Shown in pieces: positions 32,104 to 40,290 of a stretch of DNA of 64,000 nt (its first letter is position 1; every line of letters begins with the position of its first letter). The translations under genes were made by a program, and so were the position numbers. The notes below the pieces were generated by a model that saw nothing but the letters and a program-made list of their open reading frames with translations, was not told where the DNA came from and did no database searches. The DNA lies in contig CALHIR010000025.1 of assembly GCA_938030705.1 (NCBI GenBank), positions 1-64,000 of the forward strand. Direction: 5' to 3'. Source of the DNA: Candidatus Poseidoniaceae archaeon (GTDB lineage: Archaea > Thermoplasmatota > Poseidoniia > Poseidoniales > Poseidoniaceae).

Positions 32104-32178
32104 ACACGCGAGACCCTTGCGTGAGAGGGGAATTGCGCAGGAATAGAGTTAATATGGACAGAACGGCACACTGACTTG

Positions 32179-35100
32179 ATGTCCACTCTGCGTAGAACGA
32201 CTCCCGGCCTGCTTGTGACCCTGCTTTTGCTTACGGCACTGTCTCCAATTGCCACGGTCCAAGCCGTTCCCGATGAGGCATCAGAGTACTATTACGGGGT
32301 CGAATACGACTGGTCAAGCCTTGACAGCGACCTGCAAAACGTAACCGGCTTGGACATCCAAACATTGTTCACCGAAATCATGGCGGACGCCGATGATGCA
32401 GGGTTCAACCTCGACCTTGGTCAGTTGACCACAGGCGCATCCAATGTTTACGTCCACCAAACCGAGGACATCACGCCTCAAACCATCCAGGACTTGGACG
32501 GCAACGACGTTCAAGTATGGAGCCGCACCAGCGACGTGGTACTTCGCCACGGCCTGTTGTCCAACGCCGTCATCATGACCGACTGGTCGGAGACGACCTT
32601 CGGCAGCGAGCCCACCGGCTTTGACATCGACGTCATCGCCGAAGCAGAGAACGTCCTGACCGTTGACATGCTCTACACCGAATACCTCAACGACCAGTAC
32701 CAACTCGTCGGCGCAGACATGGACATTGACATGACCGTTGGCAACGACATGAACCTCGGCATCGACATCACCCTCGAGGGTGACGGCGAGGAGCTCAATG
32801 TTGACTTCGACACCGGCATGGACTTCAGCTACTCCATTGCTTCTCAAGCCGAGTGGCGACTTGGCAACCCCAGCCCCATCTACGTCACCGCTGCCTCCAA
32901 CGACCGAACCGTTTGGGAATGCGTTGAGGAAGGCGACACCGTGGGTGTTGACGATGGTTGGGACGATGCCGAGGTCTACGACATGTGCGGCATGATCGAC
33001 GGCTCCTACATCGGCTCGGCCGACTACAACGTCTACCTGACGGGCCTACCCATGGAAGAGTTTGGCTTCGATGCAGGTCAGTTTGACATCAGCATTAGCG
33101 ACGAACTCACCAGCGAAGGCGACTACGAAGGCGAGGCCAACATGGACGATGTCTCGTTCAGCATGCGCACCGACGAACCACTCGAGGTCAACCTTGGAGA
33201 CGGTAACACGCTCGATGTCACGGCCTGTGATACATGCCCGCCTGGCAACCCTGTCATGTTCATCATGATGGGCAATGTCTTGCTTCACGCCAGCGAATCC
33301 TTTGGCGAAGCGGTGACTGAAGACTTTGAGGCCGAACTCGAAGACTCGGTGGGTGAACTCATCGAAGACTGGTTTGGCATTGACGACGATGGCGACATGG
33401 AGGAGTACGACGATAGCGATAACTGGTTCATGTGCGACAGCGGTGAGATGATTGAATCTTGGAACGTCAATGACGGTGATGAAGATTGCAAGGACGGTTC
33501 GGACGAAGACGACCTCTACCTGCGTGGCGGTACCACCCAAGATTGGAATACCGGCGAGGAACACTACGCCTTCAACGGCCGTGTAGATGCTACCAGCCTC
33601 GGTCTTGAATCCGATGCAACCATTGAATGTTATAGCGAATGGGATGGCTACATGGAGTTGCCAGTTGGCGATGTCAACGACGGCTATGACGACTGCGATG
33701 ACGGCTCGGATGAGTACGACAACGGTCTCACCAGCACCTATGTCTGCTTGGATGGTTCCGAGATTTCCTTTGAACTCGTTAACGACGGCACGGCGGACTG
33801 CGCTGACGCTTCCGATGAACCCGTGGACAACGAAGGCGACTGGTACAACTGCGCCGATTACAACGGCGCCGTGCCCTGGCAGTGGGTCAACGACGGTACT
33901 GCGCAGTGCGATGACGGCAGCGACGAATACAATGCCGCCGAGAGTGATGACTTCTATTGCGAAGACTGGTCGACCGTTTCCTTTGATCTCGTGAACGACG
34001 GCACCGAAGACTGTGCTGACGGCTCGGACGAAGGCGAGGGCATCTACTTCCTGATGGACGTCTACATGAATGACGGCGAGGGCGGTGTGATCGCTTCCGG
34101 CGATGACCTTCTGCTCTGCGCTGCCTATCACTGCGACGTGTCCTTTAGCGTTGATTCGGGCTACATTCAGGTCGGTACCGAGGTACCAGCCGATATGGAA
34201 TACGGTGAGAACACGATGTGTGCCGGTGGAAGCATCGCTGCTCCCGACGGCACATCGCTGGTCTCCGCTGTTGAAAATTGCGACTCGACATGGACTGGAC
34301 CCGAAATCCGAGACTGGGAGAGCAACATGAACAACGAGGGTGACAACACCCTCCGTGTCACGGCGGGTGCAGGCACCTGGAGCGGTGAATACGACGACAT
34401 CACGATGCATTGGGCCGTTTCCGATGCCGATGGCGCGGTTGTTGACCAGGGCAGCGTTGCTTTCAGCGATGAGTCCGAGGTCTACGCCGAGAACATGGTT
34501 GACATTGCTGGTGAGGGCGAATACTGTCTCTCCGTTGAATTGGTAGAGAACGGCGAGACCGAGCCCTTTGACGCCTACGAAGACTGCATGACCGTTGAAG
34601 ACGGCCCCGAAGTCAGCGAGCGCATGGAAAAGATTGTCGGCGCATTGGCCGATTCTGGCCTCAGCAACGTGCTGGAGAACTTCGGCAGCAACCTTGAGAT
34701 GACCTTCCAAGAACTTGACGAGAACTACGAAGTGCCCGTCTTCCCCTACGCCGACGGCATGTGGGCGCCTCTTTGGAGCAACGAGCACGCCACCATCGTT
34801 GGTGTTGGCGTGTACGCTTGGGATGAGGACGGCAACGGCTACGTCATCGCTGGACCGGAAACGACCGGCTACAGCCAGGACCTGCCCATGACCTTCGCCA
34901 GCATCCGCTACATCACCGGTGTTCCCGCACAGGAAGCCCAGGAGGCGATGGCTGAATTTGATGACCTCGAAGACATCGTTGATGTGGAAAATCACGACCT
35001 TACCGAACTGGCCAATGACCTCGAAGCCGCTGGTGCCGACACGTCCGACCTTGGTCTGGGAGACGAAACCACCGATGACGGTGAGGACACGCCTCCAACC

Positions 35101-35214
35101 GCTGAGGAAGTTGCCGAAGACGCAGGTCTTCTGCCCTTTGTATCTCCACTCACAGTCATCGCACTCATCGGCCTTGCCGCTGTTGCAGGTAACCGACGAA
35201 GCGAGAACGAGTGA
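32179..35214 (+). CDS. Large secreted protein with LDL-receptor-A-like acidic repeats and C-terminal membrane anchor
   Basis: 1011 residues from ATG 32179. There is a signal peptide (TTPGLLVTLLLLTALSPIATVQA). About residues 415-625 hold five repeats ending in a calcium-site-like motif: NDGDEDCKDGSDE, NDGYDDCDDGSDE, NDGTADCADASDE, NDGTAQCDDGSDE and NDGTEDCADGSDE, each preceded by one Cys about 18 residues earlier. This is the second half of an LDL-receptor class A module. The protein is extremely acidic. The C terminus LLPFVSPLTVIALIGLAAVAGNRRSENE is a single hydrophobic segment plus basic tail, as in sorted archaeal surface proteins. It overlaps the next gene as GTGA. Confidence 0.85.
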   Translation: MSTLRRTTPGLLVTLLLLTALSPIATVQAVPDEASEYYYGVEYDWSSLDSDLQNVTGLDIQTLFTEIMADADDAGFNLDLGQLTTGASNVYVHQTEDITPQTIQDLDGNDVQVWSRTSDVVLRHGLLSNAVIMTDWSETTFGSEPTGFDIDVIAEAENVLTVDMLYTEYLNDQYQLVGADMDIDMTVGNDMNLGIDITLEGDGEELNVDFDTGMDFSYSIASQAEWRLGNPSPIYVTAASNDRTVWECVEEGDTVGVDDGWDDAEVYDMCGMIDGSYIGSADYNVYLTGLPMEEFGFDAGQFDISISDELTSEGDYEGEANMDDVSFSMRTDEPLEVNLGDGNTLDVTACDTCPPGNPVMFIMMGNVLLHASESFGEAVTEDFEAELEDSVGELIEDWFGIDDDGDMEEYDDSDNWFMCDSGEMIESWNVNDGDEDCKDGSDEDDLYLRGGTTQDWNTGEEHYAFNGRVDATSLGLESDATIECYSEWDGYMELPVGDVNDGYDDCDDGSDEYDNGLTSTYVCLDGSEISFELVNDGTADCADASDEPVDNEGDWYNCADYNGAVPWQWVNDGTAQCDDGSDEYNAAESDDFYCEDWSTVSFDLVNDGTEDCADGSDEGEGIYFLMDVYMNDGEGGVIASGDDLLLCAAYHCDVSFSVDSGYIQVGTEVPADMEYGENTMCAGGSIAAPDGTSLVSAVENCDSTWTGPEIRDWESNMNNEGDNTLRVTAGAGTWSGEYDDITMHWAVSDADGAVVDQGSVAFSDESEVYAENMVDIAGEGEYCLSVELVENGETEPFDAYEDCMTVEDGPEVSERMEKIVGALADSGLSNVLENFGSNLEMTFQELDENYEVPVFPYADGMWAPLWSNEHATIVGVGVYAWDEDGNGYVIAGPETTGYSQDLPMTFASIRYITGVPAQEAQEAMAEFDDLEDIVDVENHDLTELANDLEAAGADTSDLGLGDETTDDGEDTPPTAEEVAEDAGLLPFVSPLTVIALIGLAAVAGNRRSENE

Positions 35215-36266: not shown

Positions 36267-37676
36267 ATGGGTGCCACCATGGCTAAACCGAAAACTTCTG
36301 CAGAAAAAGCACGGGAGGATGAAGAACAATCCCAACTTGATAACATGCTGGGCGGCGCATTTGGGGGCATTGAATCGCTCGAGGCGCCGACAGGGGATGT
36401 CGACACACCAACCGAAACCATCGAAGAACCGGATTCAGAATTACCAGCCGACGCGACCGAGGGCCCGACCGGCCCCCCCACAGGCCCACCTACGGGTCCA
36501 CCTTCAGGCCCTCCATCCGGCCCCCCGACAGGTCCACCTTCAGGCCCTCCATCCGGTCCTCCGACAGGACCGCCCTCGGGTCCTCCATCCGGCCCCCCAT
36601 CAGGTCCCCCTGTGCCTTCACCCGACGATACCGGTCAGGAAGCATCACCGGTTGAAGTTGAACAAAAACCCGAAACAACCGAGCCGGAACAAGCCGAACC
36701 TGAAGCACTTGAGCCCGAAACAACCGAGCCGGAAACACCTGAGAACGTGATTGCCGAAGAAGGCGCGGGCCAAACCTCTGAGCCCGAGGCGATTGAAACC
36801 GAACCTCCTGCGAATGATGAAGCAGAAACGCTCGACGAAGCCCCCGAGAAGGCTTCCGTAGCAGAAGAACACCCCCCCTCGACCAAACCGGCGGAGACCC
36901 CCTCTTCCCCCGGTGCCCTCGACCAAACGGCCCTCGACCTTCTTGCTGAAAAGGAAGCGGAACTTGAACGTCTTCACATGGAAAACGCTCGCCTTCGCCA
37001 ATCCGTGGTCGGGGCAACGGAAGTCATTGAAGAATTGGAAGAGCCGCCCATGCCACCGCTGGTGGAAGACAACATTGTCATCCCTGCTTACATCGTTTCA
37101 GACTTTGTCCGCCTTGGCCGCCAACTCGATCGGGAACATTTGGTCAGGGCCACCATGGGCTCTTTGGCGATGATTCATCCAGAGCAACCCGGCGTAATGA
37201 TTTCTACACGCCACATGGTCACGCTCCCCCGAATGAACGAGCGCAGCCTTTGTGCAGCCCCCCTCGGGTCCACTTCCCCACGAGGCGCCCCTTCCGATTG
37301 GCACGCCCTTGAAGTCGTGCTCGCCTCGGTCTCCATGGTCACCGGGGGTCCTGCTGCGGTGATTCACATGCACGGGCCGCATACCACCGCCGCCAGTTGC
37401 GAGAAAGACCTCGTTTTGCTCACGCCTATCGATGAACTTGGAAAACAACACATCGGCAAGATCATCATTGTTGATCCGGACCCTGAACACCCGGAAGACT
37501 ACCTCCGCCAAGTGGCCGAAGCGCTCAATCAAGGTGGAATGCGGTGTGTCGTAGTTCGCGGCAACGGCGCTTATGCTGTCGGTGCGGACTTTGACCAAGC
37601 CTGGGCTAACGCAGCTATGGTGGAACACAGCATGCAGATCCACCTCCTTGCGCGACAAGCGAACCTGAAAACTTGA
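36267..37676 (+). CDS. Class II aldolase/adducin-fold protein with long (GPPT/S)n and acidic linker
   Basis: 469 residues; ATG 36279 is the alternative start. N-terminal charged segment, then twelve GPPT/GPPS units (about 69-115), an acidic Glu/Pro/Thr-rich linker to ~215, a coiled-coil-like stretch (LLAEKEAELERLHMENARLRQ, 225-245), and a C-terminal domain of ~200 residues. That domain has VMISTRHMVTLPRMNE, AAVIHMHGPHTTAAS (His367/His369) and RGNGAYAVGADFDQAWANAAMVEH. These match class II aldolase folds, but the usual third zinc ligand (His of the HG motif) is Asn433 here. It may therefore be inactive as an aldolase or structural. It shares a TATA-like element with tRNA-Asp. Confidence 0.75.
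   Translation: MGATMAKPKTSAEKAREDEEQSQLDNMLGGAFGGIESLEAPTGDVDTPTETIEEPDSELPADATEGPTGPPTGPPTGPPSGPPSGPPTGPPSGPPSGPPTGPPSGPPSGPPSGPPVPSPDDTGQEASPVEVEQKPETTEPEQAEPEALEPETTEPETPENVIAEEGAGQTSEPEAIETEPPANDEAETLDEAPEKASVAEEHPPSTKPAETPSSPGALDQTALDLLAEKEAELERLHMENARLRQSVVGATEVIEELEEPPMPPLVEDNIVIPAYIVSDFVRLGRQLDREHLVRATMGSLAMIHPEQPGVMISTRHMVTLPRMNERSLCAAPLGSTSPRGAPSDWHALEVVLASVSMVTGGPAAVIHMHGPHTTAASCEKDLVLLTPIDELGKQHIGKIIIVDPDPEHPEDYLRQVAEALNQGGMRCVVVRGNGAYAVGADFDQAWANAAMVEHSMQIHLLARQANLKT
36462..36611 (+). repeat. Tandem 12-bp repeat coding for (Gly-Pro-Pro-Thr/Ser)n
   Basis: About twelve consecutive 12-base units code GPPT or GPPS inside the aldolase-fold gene. Third positions vary between units (ggcccacct, ggtccacct and similar), so the array is not a perfect young expansion. 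The period is four residues, unlike the three-residue collagen pattern, and should give an extended, rigid linker. Confidence 0.9.
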
Positions 37677-37679
37677 CGA

Positions 37680-37818
37680 CTTCATATACTCTGAAGAGTG
37701 TATGATTTCGGAAGTGAGTGCAGTGTCCGGTTTCAGTTGTGATGGCGACAAATTTCTCTGTTGGGAGAAAGAAGTCGTTTCTTCATATACTCTGGGACAA
37801 TCACTCTATCAAAGGTGA
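37680..37818 (+). promoter_or_regulatory. Duplicated promoter and SD ahead of the polyubiquitin-like gene
   Basis: The 14-mer CTTCATATACTCTG occurs at 37680-37693 and again at 37781-37794, exactly 101 bases apart. The first copy is half of an imperfect inverted repeat, CATATACTC / GAGTGTATG (37683-37704). Each copy contains the TATA-like core TTCATATAC also found before glnA. The second copy is 43 bases before ATG 37825, and AAGGTGA at 37812-37818 is a clear Shine-Dalgarno. Tandem promoters, or an operator plus promoter, are likely. Confidence 0.55.
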
Positions 37819-37824
37819 ACACAC

Positions 37825-38679
37825 ATGGACCAAAATACGAAATTTGACGTTGAAATTGCAGACGCATCTGGACATTCTACCGTTCAGATGACACAGACCG
37901 AAATTGCCGAGAAGGCCTCCCAAACCCAGGGCTCCTGGGTGTTCGTGAACAACCAACTTGTCAGCGCCGCTGACATCGCTGACATGAATTTGGAAGCAGG
38001 CAGCCGCATTCGTTTGATGCCTGGCCTCGTTGGTGGCCAAGACGCCCCTACCTTCGATGTGGAAATCGCCGACGCAACCGGGCACTCCACCGTGCAAATG
38101 ACCCAAGACGAACTCGTCGAGAAAGCCGGCCAGACCCAAGGCTCTTGGGTGTTCATCAACAACCAACTCGTCAGCACTGCAGAACTTGCCAACATGAACT
38201 TGGACGCAGGGAGCCGCATTCGCTTGATGCCCGGCCTTGTTGGTGGCCAGCACCCCCTTACCTTCGTCGTTCAAATCACCGACCAATCTGGCCATTCCGA
38301 AGTTGTCATGACCAAGGCTCAGATTGTTGACAAGGCTACCCAAAACAACGAGTTGTGGGTCTTCGTGAACAACCAACTCGTCAACACCAATGACCTTGCT
38401 GAGATGAACATGGAAGCAGGCAGCAGCGTTCGTATGGCACCCGGTATCATCGGTGGCCAGGACGCCCCTACCTTCGACGTGGAAATTGCTGACGCAACCG
38501 GCCACTCTACCGTGCAGATGACCCAAGACGAACTGGTGGAAAAAGCCGACCAAACCCAGGGATCCTGGGTTTTCGTGGATAACCAACTCGTCAGCACCGC
38601 TGAAATCGCCAACATGAACTTGGAAGCAGGCAGCCGCATTCGCTTGATGCCCGGCTTGATCGGTGGACGTGCCTGCTGA
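37825..38679 (+). CDS. Polyubiquitin-like protein: four tandem beta-grasp-like repeats each ending in Gly-Gly
   Basis: 284 residues built of four units: 1-71, 72-141, 142-211, 212-281, then a three-residue tail RAC. Units 2-4 are exactly 70 residues. Each begins with a strand pair (TFDVEIADATGHSTVQMT), a short helix (QDELVEKA), then WVFxNNQLVSTAELANMNL and AGSRIRLMPGLVGG. The second half parallels ubiquitin's IFAGKQLEDGRTLSDYNI and STLHLVLRLRGG in order, spacing and the terminal Gly-Gly. Like eukaryotic polyubiquitin, the last unit is capped by extra residues. No Lys is conserved at ubiquitin chain sites. No protease, E1 or E2 gene lies nearby. The beta-grasp fold and processing into monomers are inferences. 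Confidence 0.85.
   Translation: MDQNTKFDVEIADASGHSTVQMTQTEIAEKASQTQGSWVFVNNQLVSAADIADMNLEAGSRIRLMPGLVGGQDAPTFDVEIADATGHSTVQMTQDELVEKAGQTQGSWVFINNQLVSTAELANMNLDAGSRIRLMPGLVGGQHPLTFVVQITDQSGHSEVVMTKAQIVDKATQNNELWVFVNNQLVNTNDLAEMNMEAGSSVRMAPGIIGGQDAPTFDVEIADATGHSTVQMTQDELVEKADQTQGSWVFVDNQLVSTAEIANMNLEAGSRIRLMPGLIGGRAC
38038..38667 (+). repeat. Tandem 210-bp coding repeats, units 2-4 of the polyubiquitin-like gene
   Basis: Units at 38038-38247, 38248-38457 and 38458-38667, with a 213-base first unit at 37825-38037. Units 2 and 4 are nearly identical in protein yet differ at many third positions (for example GATGTGGAAATCGCC against GACGTGGAAATTGCT). Unit 3 is clearly divergent in sequence but keeps the GG end and spacing. 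This points to old duplication kept by selection, not a fresh expansion or assembly artefact. Confidence 0.92.
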
Positions 38680-38684
38680 ATCCC

Positions 38685-38888
38685 ATGATGGGCGATTGGT
38701 CATTCGGCGAAGAAGCGATTCTCATTGAGAACCTCGAACTCGGCCATGATATCGAGTTGATTTCCGATGTACTCATGAGAGCCCCTTCGGACGTCGCCTT
38801 GAGGATGATTCATCTCTATCAAAACGGCTCCCTTGTCGTGATGGCTGAGGCTACTTTTGATACGCTGGTCAAACGGATTGGGGAATGA
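38685..38888 (+). CDS. Small helical protein, possibly Myb/SANT-like, following the polyubiquitin-like gene
   Basis: 67 residues; ATG 38688 is an equivalent start. It begins 5 bases after the polyubiquitin-like stop. DWSFGEEAILIENLELGHDI, then ELISDVLMRAPSDVALRM, has the W...E...L / I...L.R...V..R spacing of a single SANT/Myb or similar helix-turn-helix unit, followed by a strand-rich end (GSLVVMAEATFDTLVKRI). This resemblance is weak. Position makes co-translation with the polyubiquitin-like gene likely. Confidence 0.6.
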   Translation: MMGDWSFGEEAILIENLELGHDIELISDVLMRAPSDVALRMIHLYQNGSLVVMAEATFDTLVKRIGE

Positions 38889-38934: not shown

Positions 38935-39084
38935 ATGGTTGAACTCGTTGACTACAAGTGCGCCAACTGCGGAAACCTCGAATCGTTCCACCGAGAGCGA
39001 AACGGGATCAGCTGCAAGGCTTGCGGTTCCCGCATTTTCATGAAACTCCGCCGCCACGGCACCAAGCGCCTGAACGCTGAGTGA
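38935..39084 (+). CDS. rpoP: DNA-directed RNA polymerase subunit P (Rpo12) zinc ribbon
   Basis: 49 residues from ATG 38935. MVELVDYKCANCGN and ISCKACGSRIFMKLRRHGTKRL give the two CxxC pairs and basic tail typical of archaeal RpoP/eukaryotic Rpb12, a small zinc-binding subunit of RNA polymerase. In other archaea rpoP often follows rpl37Ae. Here it sits between the polyubiquitin-like unit and an RFC-like ATPase, all in the same direction. Confidence 0.88.
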   Translation: MVELVDYKCANCGNLESFHRERNGISCKACGSRIFMKLRRHGTKRLNAE

Positions 39085-39132
39085 GCCAAATCGCTCGCAG
39101 AGTTCAAAGACCATGGACCGGTCTTGTCGTTC

Positions 39133-40290
39133 ATGACCGTGTGGCTTGAGCATTACAAGCCCGTGCTGTTTGACGACCTGTTGACCTCAGAGCAAGTCAT
39201 TGACGCTCTCAAACATTTGGCCCTCCAAGCCAACCCTCCTCATCTTCTTCTCTCTGGCCCGTCCGGTTGTGGGAAAACGGCCGCGCTTCAACTGGTCTGC
39301 CGCCAAGTTCTCGGCCCTTCATGGCGTGCGACCACGCATATCTTGCAAGCTCGTGATTTGCACAAAACGTCAGGGGCCATGGCCAAGTTTGAGGGCTTTC
39401 TTCGTCCGGAAGGAGCTGGTTCGGAAGATACGCTCGCCGGCCGCACCAGTCTCGACGCTTTCGACCACAGCATCAGTGCCAGTGCTGACGCTTCACCCCC
39501 GCCGGCCGGAGAGGAATCCGCTGCTCCTCAAGCGGGGTCCTTCGCAGCGGTCTCCCGTATCATCATCATCGAGGATGCTGACTACTTGGGCCATGCACGC
39601 CAATCGTATCTCCGTCGGATGATGGAGGAGAGCAGCCGAAGTGCCCGCTTCCTCTTCACAACGCACACCCCCTCTCGGATTATCGAAGCCCTGCGAAGCA
39701 GAACACAACACGTTCGCATGCCCTCGCTCACCCGTTTGCAAATCGAACAACGACTCGAGTACATCGCGGGGGAGGAAAACCTCCAACCTGCAGCAGGTGT
39801 ATTGGGCGATATCGCCCACGTGGCAAACGGCAATTTGCGAAAAGCGGTCTTCACCTTCCAACTTCTTGCCCAGCGTCATCTGCTCAACGACCGGAAAAAT
39901 GTCCAGATGCTCATGGCCAACTCAAGCCGACGAGAAGTCCAGTTGGTTCTCGAGGAAGCCCTTCGGGGCCGGGTCCACGAATGGAAATGGGAGCGCCAGG
40001 GTGAGAAAAACACGCGCGTACTCAAAGGGGCCATGGGGGCACTCGACCAGATGATGGCCAACCACGACCTTGACGGCAGGGGGATGGTCGACCGACTGCA
40101 TCACTTCCTTGTCGCAGGCCGCACTCATTATCCAGAACCCCTCTTGGCGGATCTATTGGTCGCCGTTTCCGCCTGCGACCTGAACCTGCAACGGTCGGCT
40201 CAACAACGGATTCAACTTGAGGAATTACTCCACCGTTTTGCAGAGGTTGGGGAGAAACACCTCCGCTCCACACCAACGCAACCGTCTTGA
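39133..40290 (+). CDS. Replication factor C small-subunit-like AAA+ ATPase
   Basis: 385 residues from ATG 39133; TTG 39124 is also in frame. It opens WLEHYKPVLFDDLLTSEQVI, typical of RfcS. Walker A GPSGCGKT is at 42-49 and Walker B IIIIEDAD at 143-150, reading EDAD where RFC small subunits have DEAD. An extra Ala/Ser/Pro-rich insertion (about 92-138) lies between them. The arginine-finger box reads RSRTQHVRM where SRC is usual. The C-terminal collar is present. The protein would belong to the clamp loader that loads PCNA; its unusual motifs suggest a paralogue with altered ATPase role. Confidence 0.82.
   Translation: MTVWLEHYKPVLFDDLLTSEQVIDALKHLALQANPPHLLLSGPSGCGKTAALQLVCRQVLGPSWRATTHILQARDLHKTSGAMAKFEGFLRPEGAGSEDTLAGRTSLDAFDHSISASADASPPPAGEESAAPQAGSFAAVSRIIIIEDADYLGHARQSYLRRMMEESSRSARFLFTTHTPSRIIEALRSRTQHVRMPSLTRLQIEQRLEYIAGEENLQPAAGVLGDIAHVANGNLRKAVFTFQLLAQRHLLNDRKNVQMLMANSSRREVQLVLEEALRGRVHEWKWERQGEKNTRVLKGAMGALDQMMANHDLDGRGMVDRLHHFLVAGRTHYPEPLLADLLVAVSACDLNLQRSAQQRIQLEELLHRFAEVGEKHLRSTPTQPS

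What the first reader, a model, noticed from the sequence alone, without database searches (positions are those of the whole stretch)
37825..38679. Archaeal polyubiquitin-like precursor: four GG-ended beta-grasp-like units plus a three-residue cap
Seen: four units of 71, 70, 70 and 70 residues, each ending ...MPGLVGG, APGIIGG or MPGLIGG, with a final RAC tail. The second half of each unit (WVFxNNQLVSTAELANMNL, AGSRIRLMPGLVGG) aligns in order and spacing with ubiquitin (LIFAGKQLEDGRTLSDYNI, STLHLVLRLRGG). Known: eukaryotic polyubiquitin is made as head-to-tail repeats with a short C-terminal cap and cut after GG; archaeal SAMPs are single beta-grasp units ending GG; bacterial multiubiquitin proteins exist. 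Inference: this is a tandem modifier precursor or a multivalent scaffold. Units 2 and 4 differ by many synonymous changes, so selection holds the protein.
Basis: partly seen in the sequence, partly recalled or inferred. Interest (0 to 1): 0.93.

Follow-up and report, generated by a model that had tools for sequence, protein, structure and literature searches.

The report
Archaeal polyubiquitin-like tag precursor
A marine archaeon has a gene for four repeated units, predicted to fold like ubiquitin and each ending in two glycines, that is likely cut into separate protein tags by a predicted protease encoded elsewhere in the same genome, much as our own cells are known to make ubiquitin.

Summary
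In detail: window 37825-38679 (+) encodes 284 residues, four units of 71/70/70/70 ending GLVGG/GLVGG/GIIGG/GLIGG plus a RAC cap. Arrays of one to four units occur across the order Poseidoniales. Every uncut unit read without a tail filter ends in glycine: 115 GG and 30 AG of 146, one cut. AG replaces GG in both units of one subclade, a real exception. AlphaFold gives a beta-grasp (pLDDT 79.5); most top fold matches are ubiquitin-like or MoaD, with modest scores. The surroundings give the best clue. The genome also encodes an E1-like enzyme overlapping, by ATGA, a protein with the JAMM protease motif. In 11 other genomes that pair shares a cluster with a unit gene; in three, two units are fused to the E1. 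Units and JAMM co-occur (82 both, 6 and 10 alone, 47 neither, of 145). Best reading: a polyubiquitin-like precursor, likely cut by JAMM and activated by the E1. Cleavage and conjugation are untested. It combines features of bacterial polyUbl operons, eukaryotic polyubiquitin and Caldiarchaeum ubiquitin. In two-unit genes, C-terminal halves are homogenised while N-terminal halves stay position-specific. I found no published description.

The parts
37825..38679 (+). Four-unit ubiquitin-like precursor ORF, 284 aa plus stop
   Evidence: homologous arrays
37825..38037 (+). Unit 1 (71 aa, ends MPGLVGG); predicted beta-grasp
   Evidence: AlphaFold; fold matches
38038..38247 (+). Unit 2 (70 aa, ends MPGLVGG)
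38248..38457 (+). Unit 3 (70 aa, ends APGIIGG), the most divergent unit
38458..38667 (+). Unit 4 (70 aa, ends MPGLIGG)
38668..38676 (+). Three-residue cap Arg-Ala-Cys after the last Gly-Gly
   Evidence: RAC is also the commonest cap in homologues
37781..37824 (+). Likely promoter and ribosome-binding region: TATA-like CTTCATATACTCTG (37781-37794) and AAAGGTGA before the ATG
   Evidence: read directly; function inferred
38685..38888 (+). Small ORF (67 aa, or 66 from a second ATG at 38688) starting 5 bases after the array's stop, likely co-transcribed; unknown function, found beside many Poseidonia arrays
   Evidence: no Pfam or NCBIfam match
38935..39084 (+). Zinc-ribbon RNA polymerase subunit P homologue, syntenic neighbour
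39130..40290 (+). Replication factor C small-subunit-like gene, syntenic neighbour
36267..37676 (+). Class II aldolase-domain gene with a Pro/Gly-rich N-terminal stretch, upstream neighbour

Best explanation
The gene encodes a head-to-tail precursor of four units, predicted to be ubiquitin-like beta-grasp folds, each ending in Gly-Gly and followed by a three-residue cap, that is likely cut after each Gly-Gly by a dedicated predicted JAMM metalloprotease so that the released units would be activated by the E1-like enzyme encoded next to that protease. Shown: the repeats, the terminal-glycine and cap pattern, variable unit number, purifying selection, the E1-JAMM gene pair in the same genome with its motif residues, its clustering or fusion with the units in related genomes, and the co-occurrence. 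Predicted: the fold of the unit. Inferred: cleavage after the glycine, adenylation of the freed tail by the E1, and transfer to proteins. A conserved partner protein (X; L117 in this genome) carries an invariant His-Pro...Cys pattern and may act as an E2-like carrier, but sequence tests did not show E2 homology. The JAMM could also remove the tag, making the modification reversible.
For: Terminal glycine in 145 of 145 uncut units read with an anchor that ignores the tail: 115 GG and 30 AG, 73 distinct ORFs. In a larger set of 122 distinct but redundant proteins, whose loci part was pre-filtered by a tail pattern, GG ends 277 of 285 detected units. No complete gene examined stops on the glycine: the five apparent cases are two contig ends and three off-by-one readings with one more residue, and of 120 proteins, 119 have GG and none ends there. 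Unit number: 4 in the window, 3 in L001-L004, 2 in L005, 1 in 74-aa genes with the same RAC cap. Fold: beta-beta-alpha-beta-beta-short helix-beta, pLDDT 79.5; most of the 50 rows listed by each search are ubiquitin, SUMO, ISG15 or MoaD type. Own genome: E1-like and JAMM ORFs overlapping by ATGA. JAMM alignment: E, HTH, S and D invariant in 7 of 7; E1 alignment: GxGGIG and two Cys invariant in 7 of 7. E1-JAMM adjacent in 43 of 43 loci, 36 distinct places. Unit gene in the same cluster in 11 genomes; two units fused to the E1 in G001 and G005, and in G015 by coordinates and frame. Co-occurrence 82/6/10/47 of 145 and 112/9/20/151 of 292.
Confidence: 0.72

Rival explanations
1. Uncut multivalent scaffold: the array stays intact, the glycines are a flexible linker, and the units present repeated binding surfaces.
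For: Paralogues with a unit-like domain followed by other domains and a degraded GG exist (P0057, P0059-P0061, P0064), and one subclade has AG in place of GG. Bacterial multi-ubiquitin-domain proteins are a known kind (PDB 8u38 listed; PMC1779556 passages).
Against: The terminal glycine is kept in 145 of 145 uncut units, in single-unit genes, and at the junction to fused domains. Units co-occur and cluster with an E1-like gene and a JAMM.
Confidence: 0.14
2. Sulfur carrier: units act like ThiS/MoaD/SAMP as thiocarboxylate donors for a metabolite or tRNA, released by JAMM and charged by the E1.
For: Weak matches to ThiS and SAMP1 models below cut-off; MoaD, TtuB and SAMP2 among fold matches; some databases name homologues 'sulfur carrier protein ThiS'; JAB-containing sulfur operons are known in bacteria (PMC1779556 passages).
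Against: The genome has a separate SAMP/MoaD-like protein ending PPVSGG and a separate UbaA-like E1 with a rhodanese-like C-terminal part (the rhodanese is by my reading of the sequence, not scanned). The clustered E1 ORF ends without such a part, and no sulfur gene was recognised among the ORFs of the clustered loci read (not all were domain-scanned).
Confidence: 0.1
3. Antiviral conjugation system comparable to bacterial Bil/E1-E2-JAB defence operons.
For: The E1 partially matches PADLOC 'E1-E2' models (best E 1.1e-11); the clustered version of the operon is patchy between genera.
Against: PADLOC gives nothing for the units, JAMM or X; in Poseidonia the array sits in a conserved locus beside RNA polymerase subunit P and RFC.
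Confidence: 0.15

Closest known systems
Eukaryotic polyubiquitin genes (UBB, UBC, UBI4; PMC11354881, passages)
   Same: Head-to-tail beta-grasp units each ending GG, cut at GG, variable unit number. A short cap and homogenisation between repeats are recalled.
   Different: Units here are far more diverged from one another, only the C-terminal half is homogenised, sequence similarity to ubiquitin is weak, one subclade uses AG, and the predicted processor is a JAMM.
Bacterial polyUbl operons (type 6e of Iyer et al. 2006, PMC1779556, passages)
   Same: One to three tandem Ub-like domains with an E1-like gene and JAB, plus further proteins; single-unit and fused versions exist.
   Different: By my reading of the passages, those families lack a conserved C-terminal glycine; here every uncut unit read ends in glycine, with a cap after the last. 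No Pfam multi-ubiquitin family was listed for this protein (that such a model exists is recalled).
Caldiarchaeum subterraneum ubiquitin CsUb with CsRpn11 (PMC6043591, abstract and passages)
   Same: Archaeal Ub-like precursor with residues after GG, cut exactly after GG by a JAMM-type protease; appears as a fold match (6fnn).
   Different: CsUb is a single unit, with an 87-aa precursor; here the precursor holds up to four.
Archaeal SAMPs with HvJAMM1 (PMC4443979, PMC4895103; search listing with abstract starts)
   Same: Archaeal Ub-like GG modifiers with a JAMM.
   Different: SAMPs are single units (recalled); this genome has its own SAMP-like protein ending on GG with no cap.

Membership tests
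Polyubiquitin-type precursor (functional kind) | Two or more head-to-tail beta-grasp units each ending GG | tested here: met
   for the window's gene (fold is predicted); AG in place of GG in 15 of 73 distinct homologous ORFs
Polyubiquitin-type precursor (functional kind) | C-terminal cap after the last unit | tested here: met
   RAC in the window; one or more residues in all complete genes examined
Polyubiquitin-type precursor (functional kind) | Unit number varies between relatives | tested here: met
   1 to 4 units; assembly collapse may affect some counts
Polyubiquitin-type precursor (functional kind) | Proteolytic release of monomers and conjugation to proteins | not testable with these tools
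   needs biochemistry
Ubiquitin family (Pfam PF00240) | Sequence match to the family model above its cut-off | tested here: not met
   not listed for the array; best E 0.099 in 1 of 29 units
ThiS/MoaD/SAMP1 (TIGR01683, PF02597, NF041918) | Match above the curated cut-off | tested here: not met
   30.1 vs 37.45 and 20.5 vs 60 bits, unit 1: 13.3 vs 22.5 bits
Lambda_tail_I (PF06805), a phage family reported to hold a Ub-like domain | Match above the curated cut-off | tested here: inconclusive
   24.0 vs 23.8 bits summed over repeats, with no single stretch passing
JAMM/MPN+ metalloprotease (L057 2106-2651) | Glu plus H[ST]Hx7SxxD | tested here: met
   invariant in 7 of 7; the Pfam Prok-JAB score itself is below cut-off
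E1-like/ThiF (L057 1474-2106) | ThiF-family adenylating domain above cut-off | tested here: met
   69.2 vs 28.1 bits; one search lists UBA1, MccB, ThiF and MoeB
E2 (UBC) for protein X | Detectable UBC homology or fold | tested here: inconclusive
   searches show none; model confidence in that part is low; invariant HP...C seen
Bacterial Bil/CBASS E1-E2 defence systems | System components recognised by PADLOC | tested here: inconclusive
   only the E1 domain matches, partially

The most novel reading that the evidence does not exclude
Poseidoniales archaea evolved their own polyubiquitin system, independent of eukaryotes: arrays of glycine-ended modifiers processed and activated by a dedicated E1-JAMM pair with a new carrier (X). 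Each array yields a mixed set of tags that share one homogenised C-terminal half, read by the same enzymes, but carry different position-specific N-terminal halves that would give different signals.
Probability: 0.42. Interest if true: 0.93.

Novelty: new variant of a known kind. Interest (0 to 1): 0.85.

Why it matters
Polyubiquitin genes are usually taken as a eukaryotic hallmark (recalled), and bacterial tandem versions are, by my reading of PMC1779556, without a conserved terminal glycine. A capped array with a glycine tail on every unit, together with its own E1 and JAMM, in abundant marine archaea would be an apparently separate invention of the same manufacturing trick. The E1, JAMM and unit are small, so cleavage and activation can be tested directly. 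The half-homogenised repeats also suggest a way to make several different signals from one gene.

Tried and rejected
E2 identity of protein X: Pfam scan of 17 members, PDB profile search, comparison with UBE2D2 and fold search of P0058 gave no E2 match. The P0058 model has low confidence there (mean pLDDT 66, about 45 around the Cys), so I keep E2 only as a guess.

My first count of GG was biased: loci were pre-filtered by a P-x-[LIM]-[VIS]-G tail pattern, which hid a subclade ending AG. A recount with an anchor that ignores the tail found it. GG invariance in alignment A6 is also by construction. can miss atypical units, such as the first domain of P0063.

The polyubiquitin E-values of 1e-12 are sums over nine identical repeats at 4 bits each and are not used as proof. 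Pfam and NCBIfam rows for P0001 with E near 1e-5 (MmgE_PrpD_C, ZPR1, Fibro_Slime) are below cut-off and rejected. Fisher p-values ignore relatedness, so only counts are given; the genome lists in those scripts were typed.

Papers: no description of a Poseidoniales or Marine Group II tandem modifier was found in the held open-licence library; most subscription papers, and bioRxiv preprints, are not held. PMC4327156 (passages) reports a UCH protease and RING E3s in one Marine Group II genome, but no tandem Ub label in the passages seen.

Full report
What is there. Window 37825-38679 (+) is a single open frame of 284 residues: units of 71, 70, 70 and 70 residues ending GLVGG, GLVGG, GIIGG and GLIGG, then Arg-Ala-Cys. 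Units 1 and 2 agree at 54 of 68 positions, against at most 13 in 2000 shuffles; units 2 and 4 differ mostly at synonymous sites (dN/dS 0.06), while unit 3 is divergent. The window lies in a genome close to Candidatus Poseidonia (G000, contig 25; record titles; order Poseidoniales), and one array was found there.

Relatives. A genome-contig scan gave five relatives, titled Poseidonia, Euryarchaeota archaeon or uncultured euryarchaeote: four with three units (one cut at a contig end) and one with two. A protein search gave 62 proteins, and a unit-profile search 184, of which the 120 listed were read. RAC is the commonest cap; others are LYC, NHC, LTA, F, LY and GLHF. Single-unit genes keep the cap (for example the 74-aa P0093 ending GGRAC), although collapsed repeats in metagenome assemblies may explain some of them. 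The residue after internal GG is mostly Gln.

The tail, for and against. With an anchor that does not involve the tail, 73 distinct ORFs in the fetched loci hold 146 units: 115 end GG, 30 end AG and one is cut by a contig end. The 30 AG units are in 15 ORFs of genus g11, both units of each (PALQAG, PALLAG or PSLQAG), still followed by one last residue; 12 of those 15 genomes have the JAMM (lists). I read it as a coordinated change of the penultimate residue: the last glycine stays, and known modifiers such as UFM1 and ATG8 end in a single glycine (recalled). In the larger but pre-filtered and redundant set, GG ends 277 of 285 detected units. The other eight are one contig end, two in proteins that look frame-shifted, and five in a paralogue branch where a unit is followed by other domains.

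Partners. The same genome has an E1-like ORF (L057, ThiF 69.2 bits against a 28.1 cut-off) whose stop overlaps the start of an ORF with the JAMM motif HTHx7SxxD. All seven aligned sequences share the JAMM motif residues, and the E1 nucleotide loop plus two cysteines. E1 and JAMM are adjacent in 43 of 43 loci examined, 36 distinct places; 33 of the 43 were picked as strong JAMM matches. A small gene follows the JAMM in many of them. The genome also has a second JAMM-motif protein (L058), a canonical E1 with a rhodanese-like C-terminal part (L056) and a capless SAMP-like protein ending PPVSGG (L059), so a separate sulfur-carrier set appears to exist.

Linkage. In this genome and most fetched relatives of its genus the array lies beside RNA polymerase subunit P and an RFC small subunit, away from E1-JAMM. 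In 11 other genomes (G001, G004, G005, G015, G024, G114, G131, G143, G196, G249, G298) a unit gene shares a cluster with E1-JAMM, in G298 with one gene between. In G001 and G005 two GG-ended units and the E1 form one protein, and by coordinates also in G015. In G196 and G249, of another family of the order, E1 and JAMM are one protein after a one-unit gene. In 16 of 17 P0058-like proteins one or two units head a further domain, X.

Co-occurrence. Among 145 genomes of the family: units 88, JAMM 92, both 82, neither 47. The specific E1 (over 79 bits; canonical ones at or below 45) is in 93, 91 of them with JAMM. Among 292 genomes of the class: units 121, JAMM 132, both 112, neither 151. Within genera g5, g9 and g10 one genome each has all three, while the sister genomes that the tables list have neither units nor JAMM. 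In a sample of 292 genomes of the phylum the JAMM matched 39, all in two families of this order. Shared ancestry inflates formal significance.

Protein X. A homologue of X without units is in the window's genome (L117, E 9e-42). X occurs in 60 of 292 class genomes, 58 of which have units or JAMM. In G001 a contig-edge fragment of X lies about 35 bases upstream of an E1-JAMM pair. X has an invariant His-Pro and Cys, reminiscent of E2 enzymes, but no test showed E2 homology.

Half-homogenised repeats. In 16 distinct two-unit genes of the set L001-L035, the C-terminal halves of the two units average 0.89 nucleotide identity within a gene, against 0.71 for the same position between genomes. In 11 of 16, unit 1's C-half is at least as close to its own partner as to any other genome's unit 1; for N-halves this is 0 of 16. 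The half carrying the tail is thus homogenised, as by gene conversion, while the first half stays position-specific. The effect is absent or weak in the g11 loci L031-L033 and L035, where both halves differ. I infer that the enzymes see one common face while the tags differ on the other.

How it likely works. JAMM would cut after each terminal glycine and remove the cap. The E1 would adenylate the freed tail and may pass it through its cysteines, perhaps via X, to proteins. JAMM could reverse the reaction. CsRpn11 from Caldiarchaeum is a precedent for a JAMM-type protease cutting a precursor after GG (PMC6043591, passages). All of these steps are inference here.

Novelty. Bacterial polyUbl operons (PMC1779556, passages) have one to three tandem units with E1 and JAB, but, as I read those passages, no conserved terminal glycine. 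Eukaryotic polyubiquitin and single-unit archaeal ubiquitin are the other neighbours. I class this as a new variant of a known kind. That it is unpublished rests on the searches only.

Noticed in passing
window 32176-35214 (+): A 1012-aa ORF with LDL-receptor class A repeats (Pfam PF00057, 53 bits, four stretches), unexpected to me in an archaeon.
   Followed up: partly
window 36267-37676 (+): A class II aldolase-domain protein whose N-terminal part holds a long Gly-Pro-Pro repeat (GPPTGPPSGPP...); homologues lie near the array in most fetched relatives.
   Followed up: no
window 38685-38888 (+): A 66-67 aa ORF 5 bases after the array's stop, found beside many Poseidonia arrays at 35-74% identity, with no family match.
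   Followed up: partly
window 37680-37693 and 37781-37794: An exact 14-base direct repeat CTTCATATACTCTG, TATA-like, twice upstream of the array's start.
   Followed up: no
L048, L120-L126, L128-L134: Two-unit arrays in which both units end AG instead of GG, still with one residue after the last glycine.
   Followed up: partly
P0056, P0057, P0059-P0064: Paralogues with one or two unit-like domains followed by other conserved domains; in P0057, P0059-P0061 and P0064 the GG is degraded; possible uncut scaffolds.
   Followed up: partly
L058 1054-1929: A second JAMM-motif protein (HTHPNAPAIPSGAD) in the window's genome, on another contig than the E1.
   Followed up: partly
L039 1172-2470, L044 2461-3783, L045 1216-2412, L112 4167-5378: A divergent protein near the clustered unit or E1-JAMM genes, with CxxC motifs near the N-terminus and a conserved Cys-Ile near the C-terminus.
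   Followed up: partly
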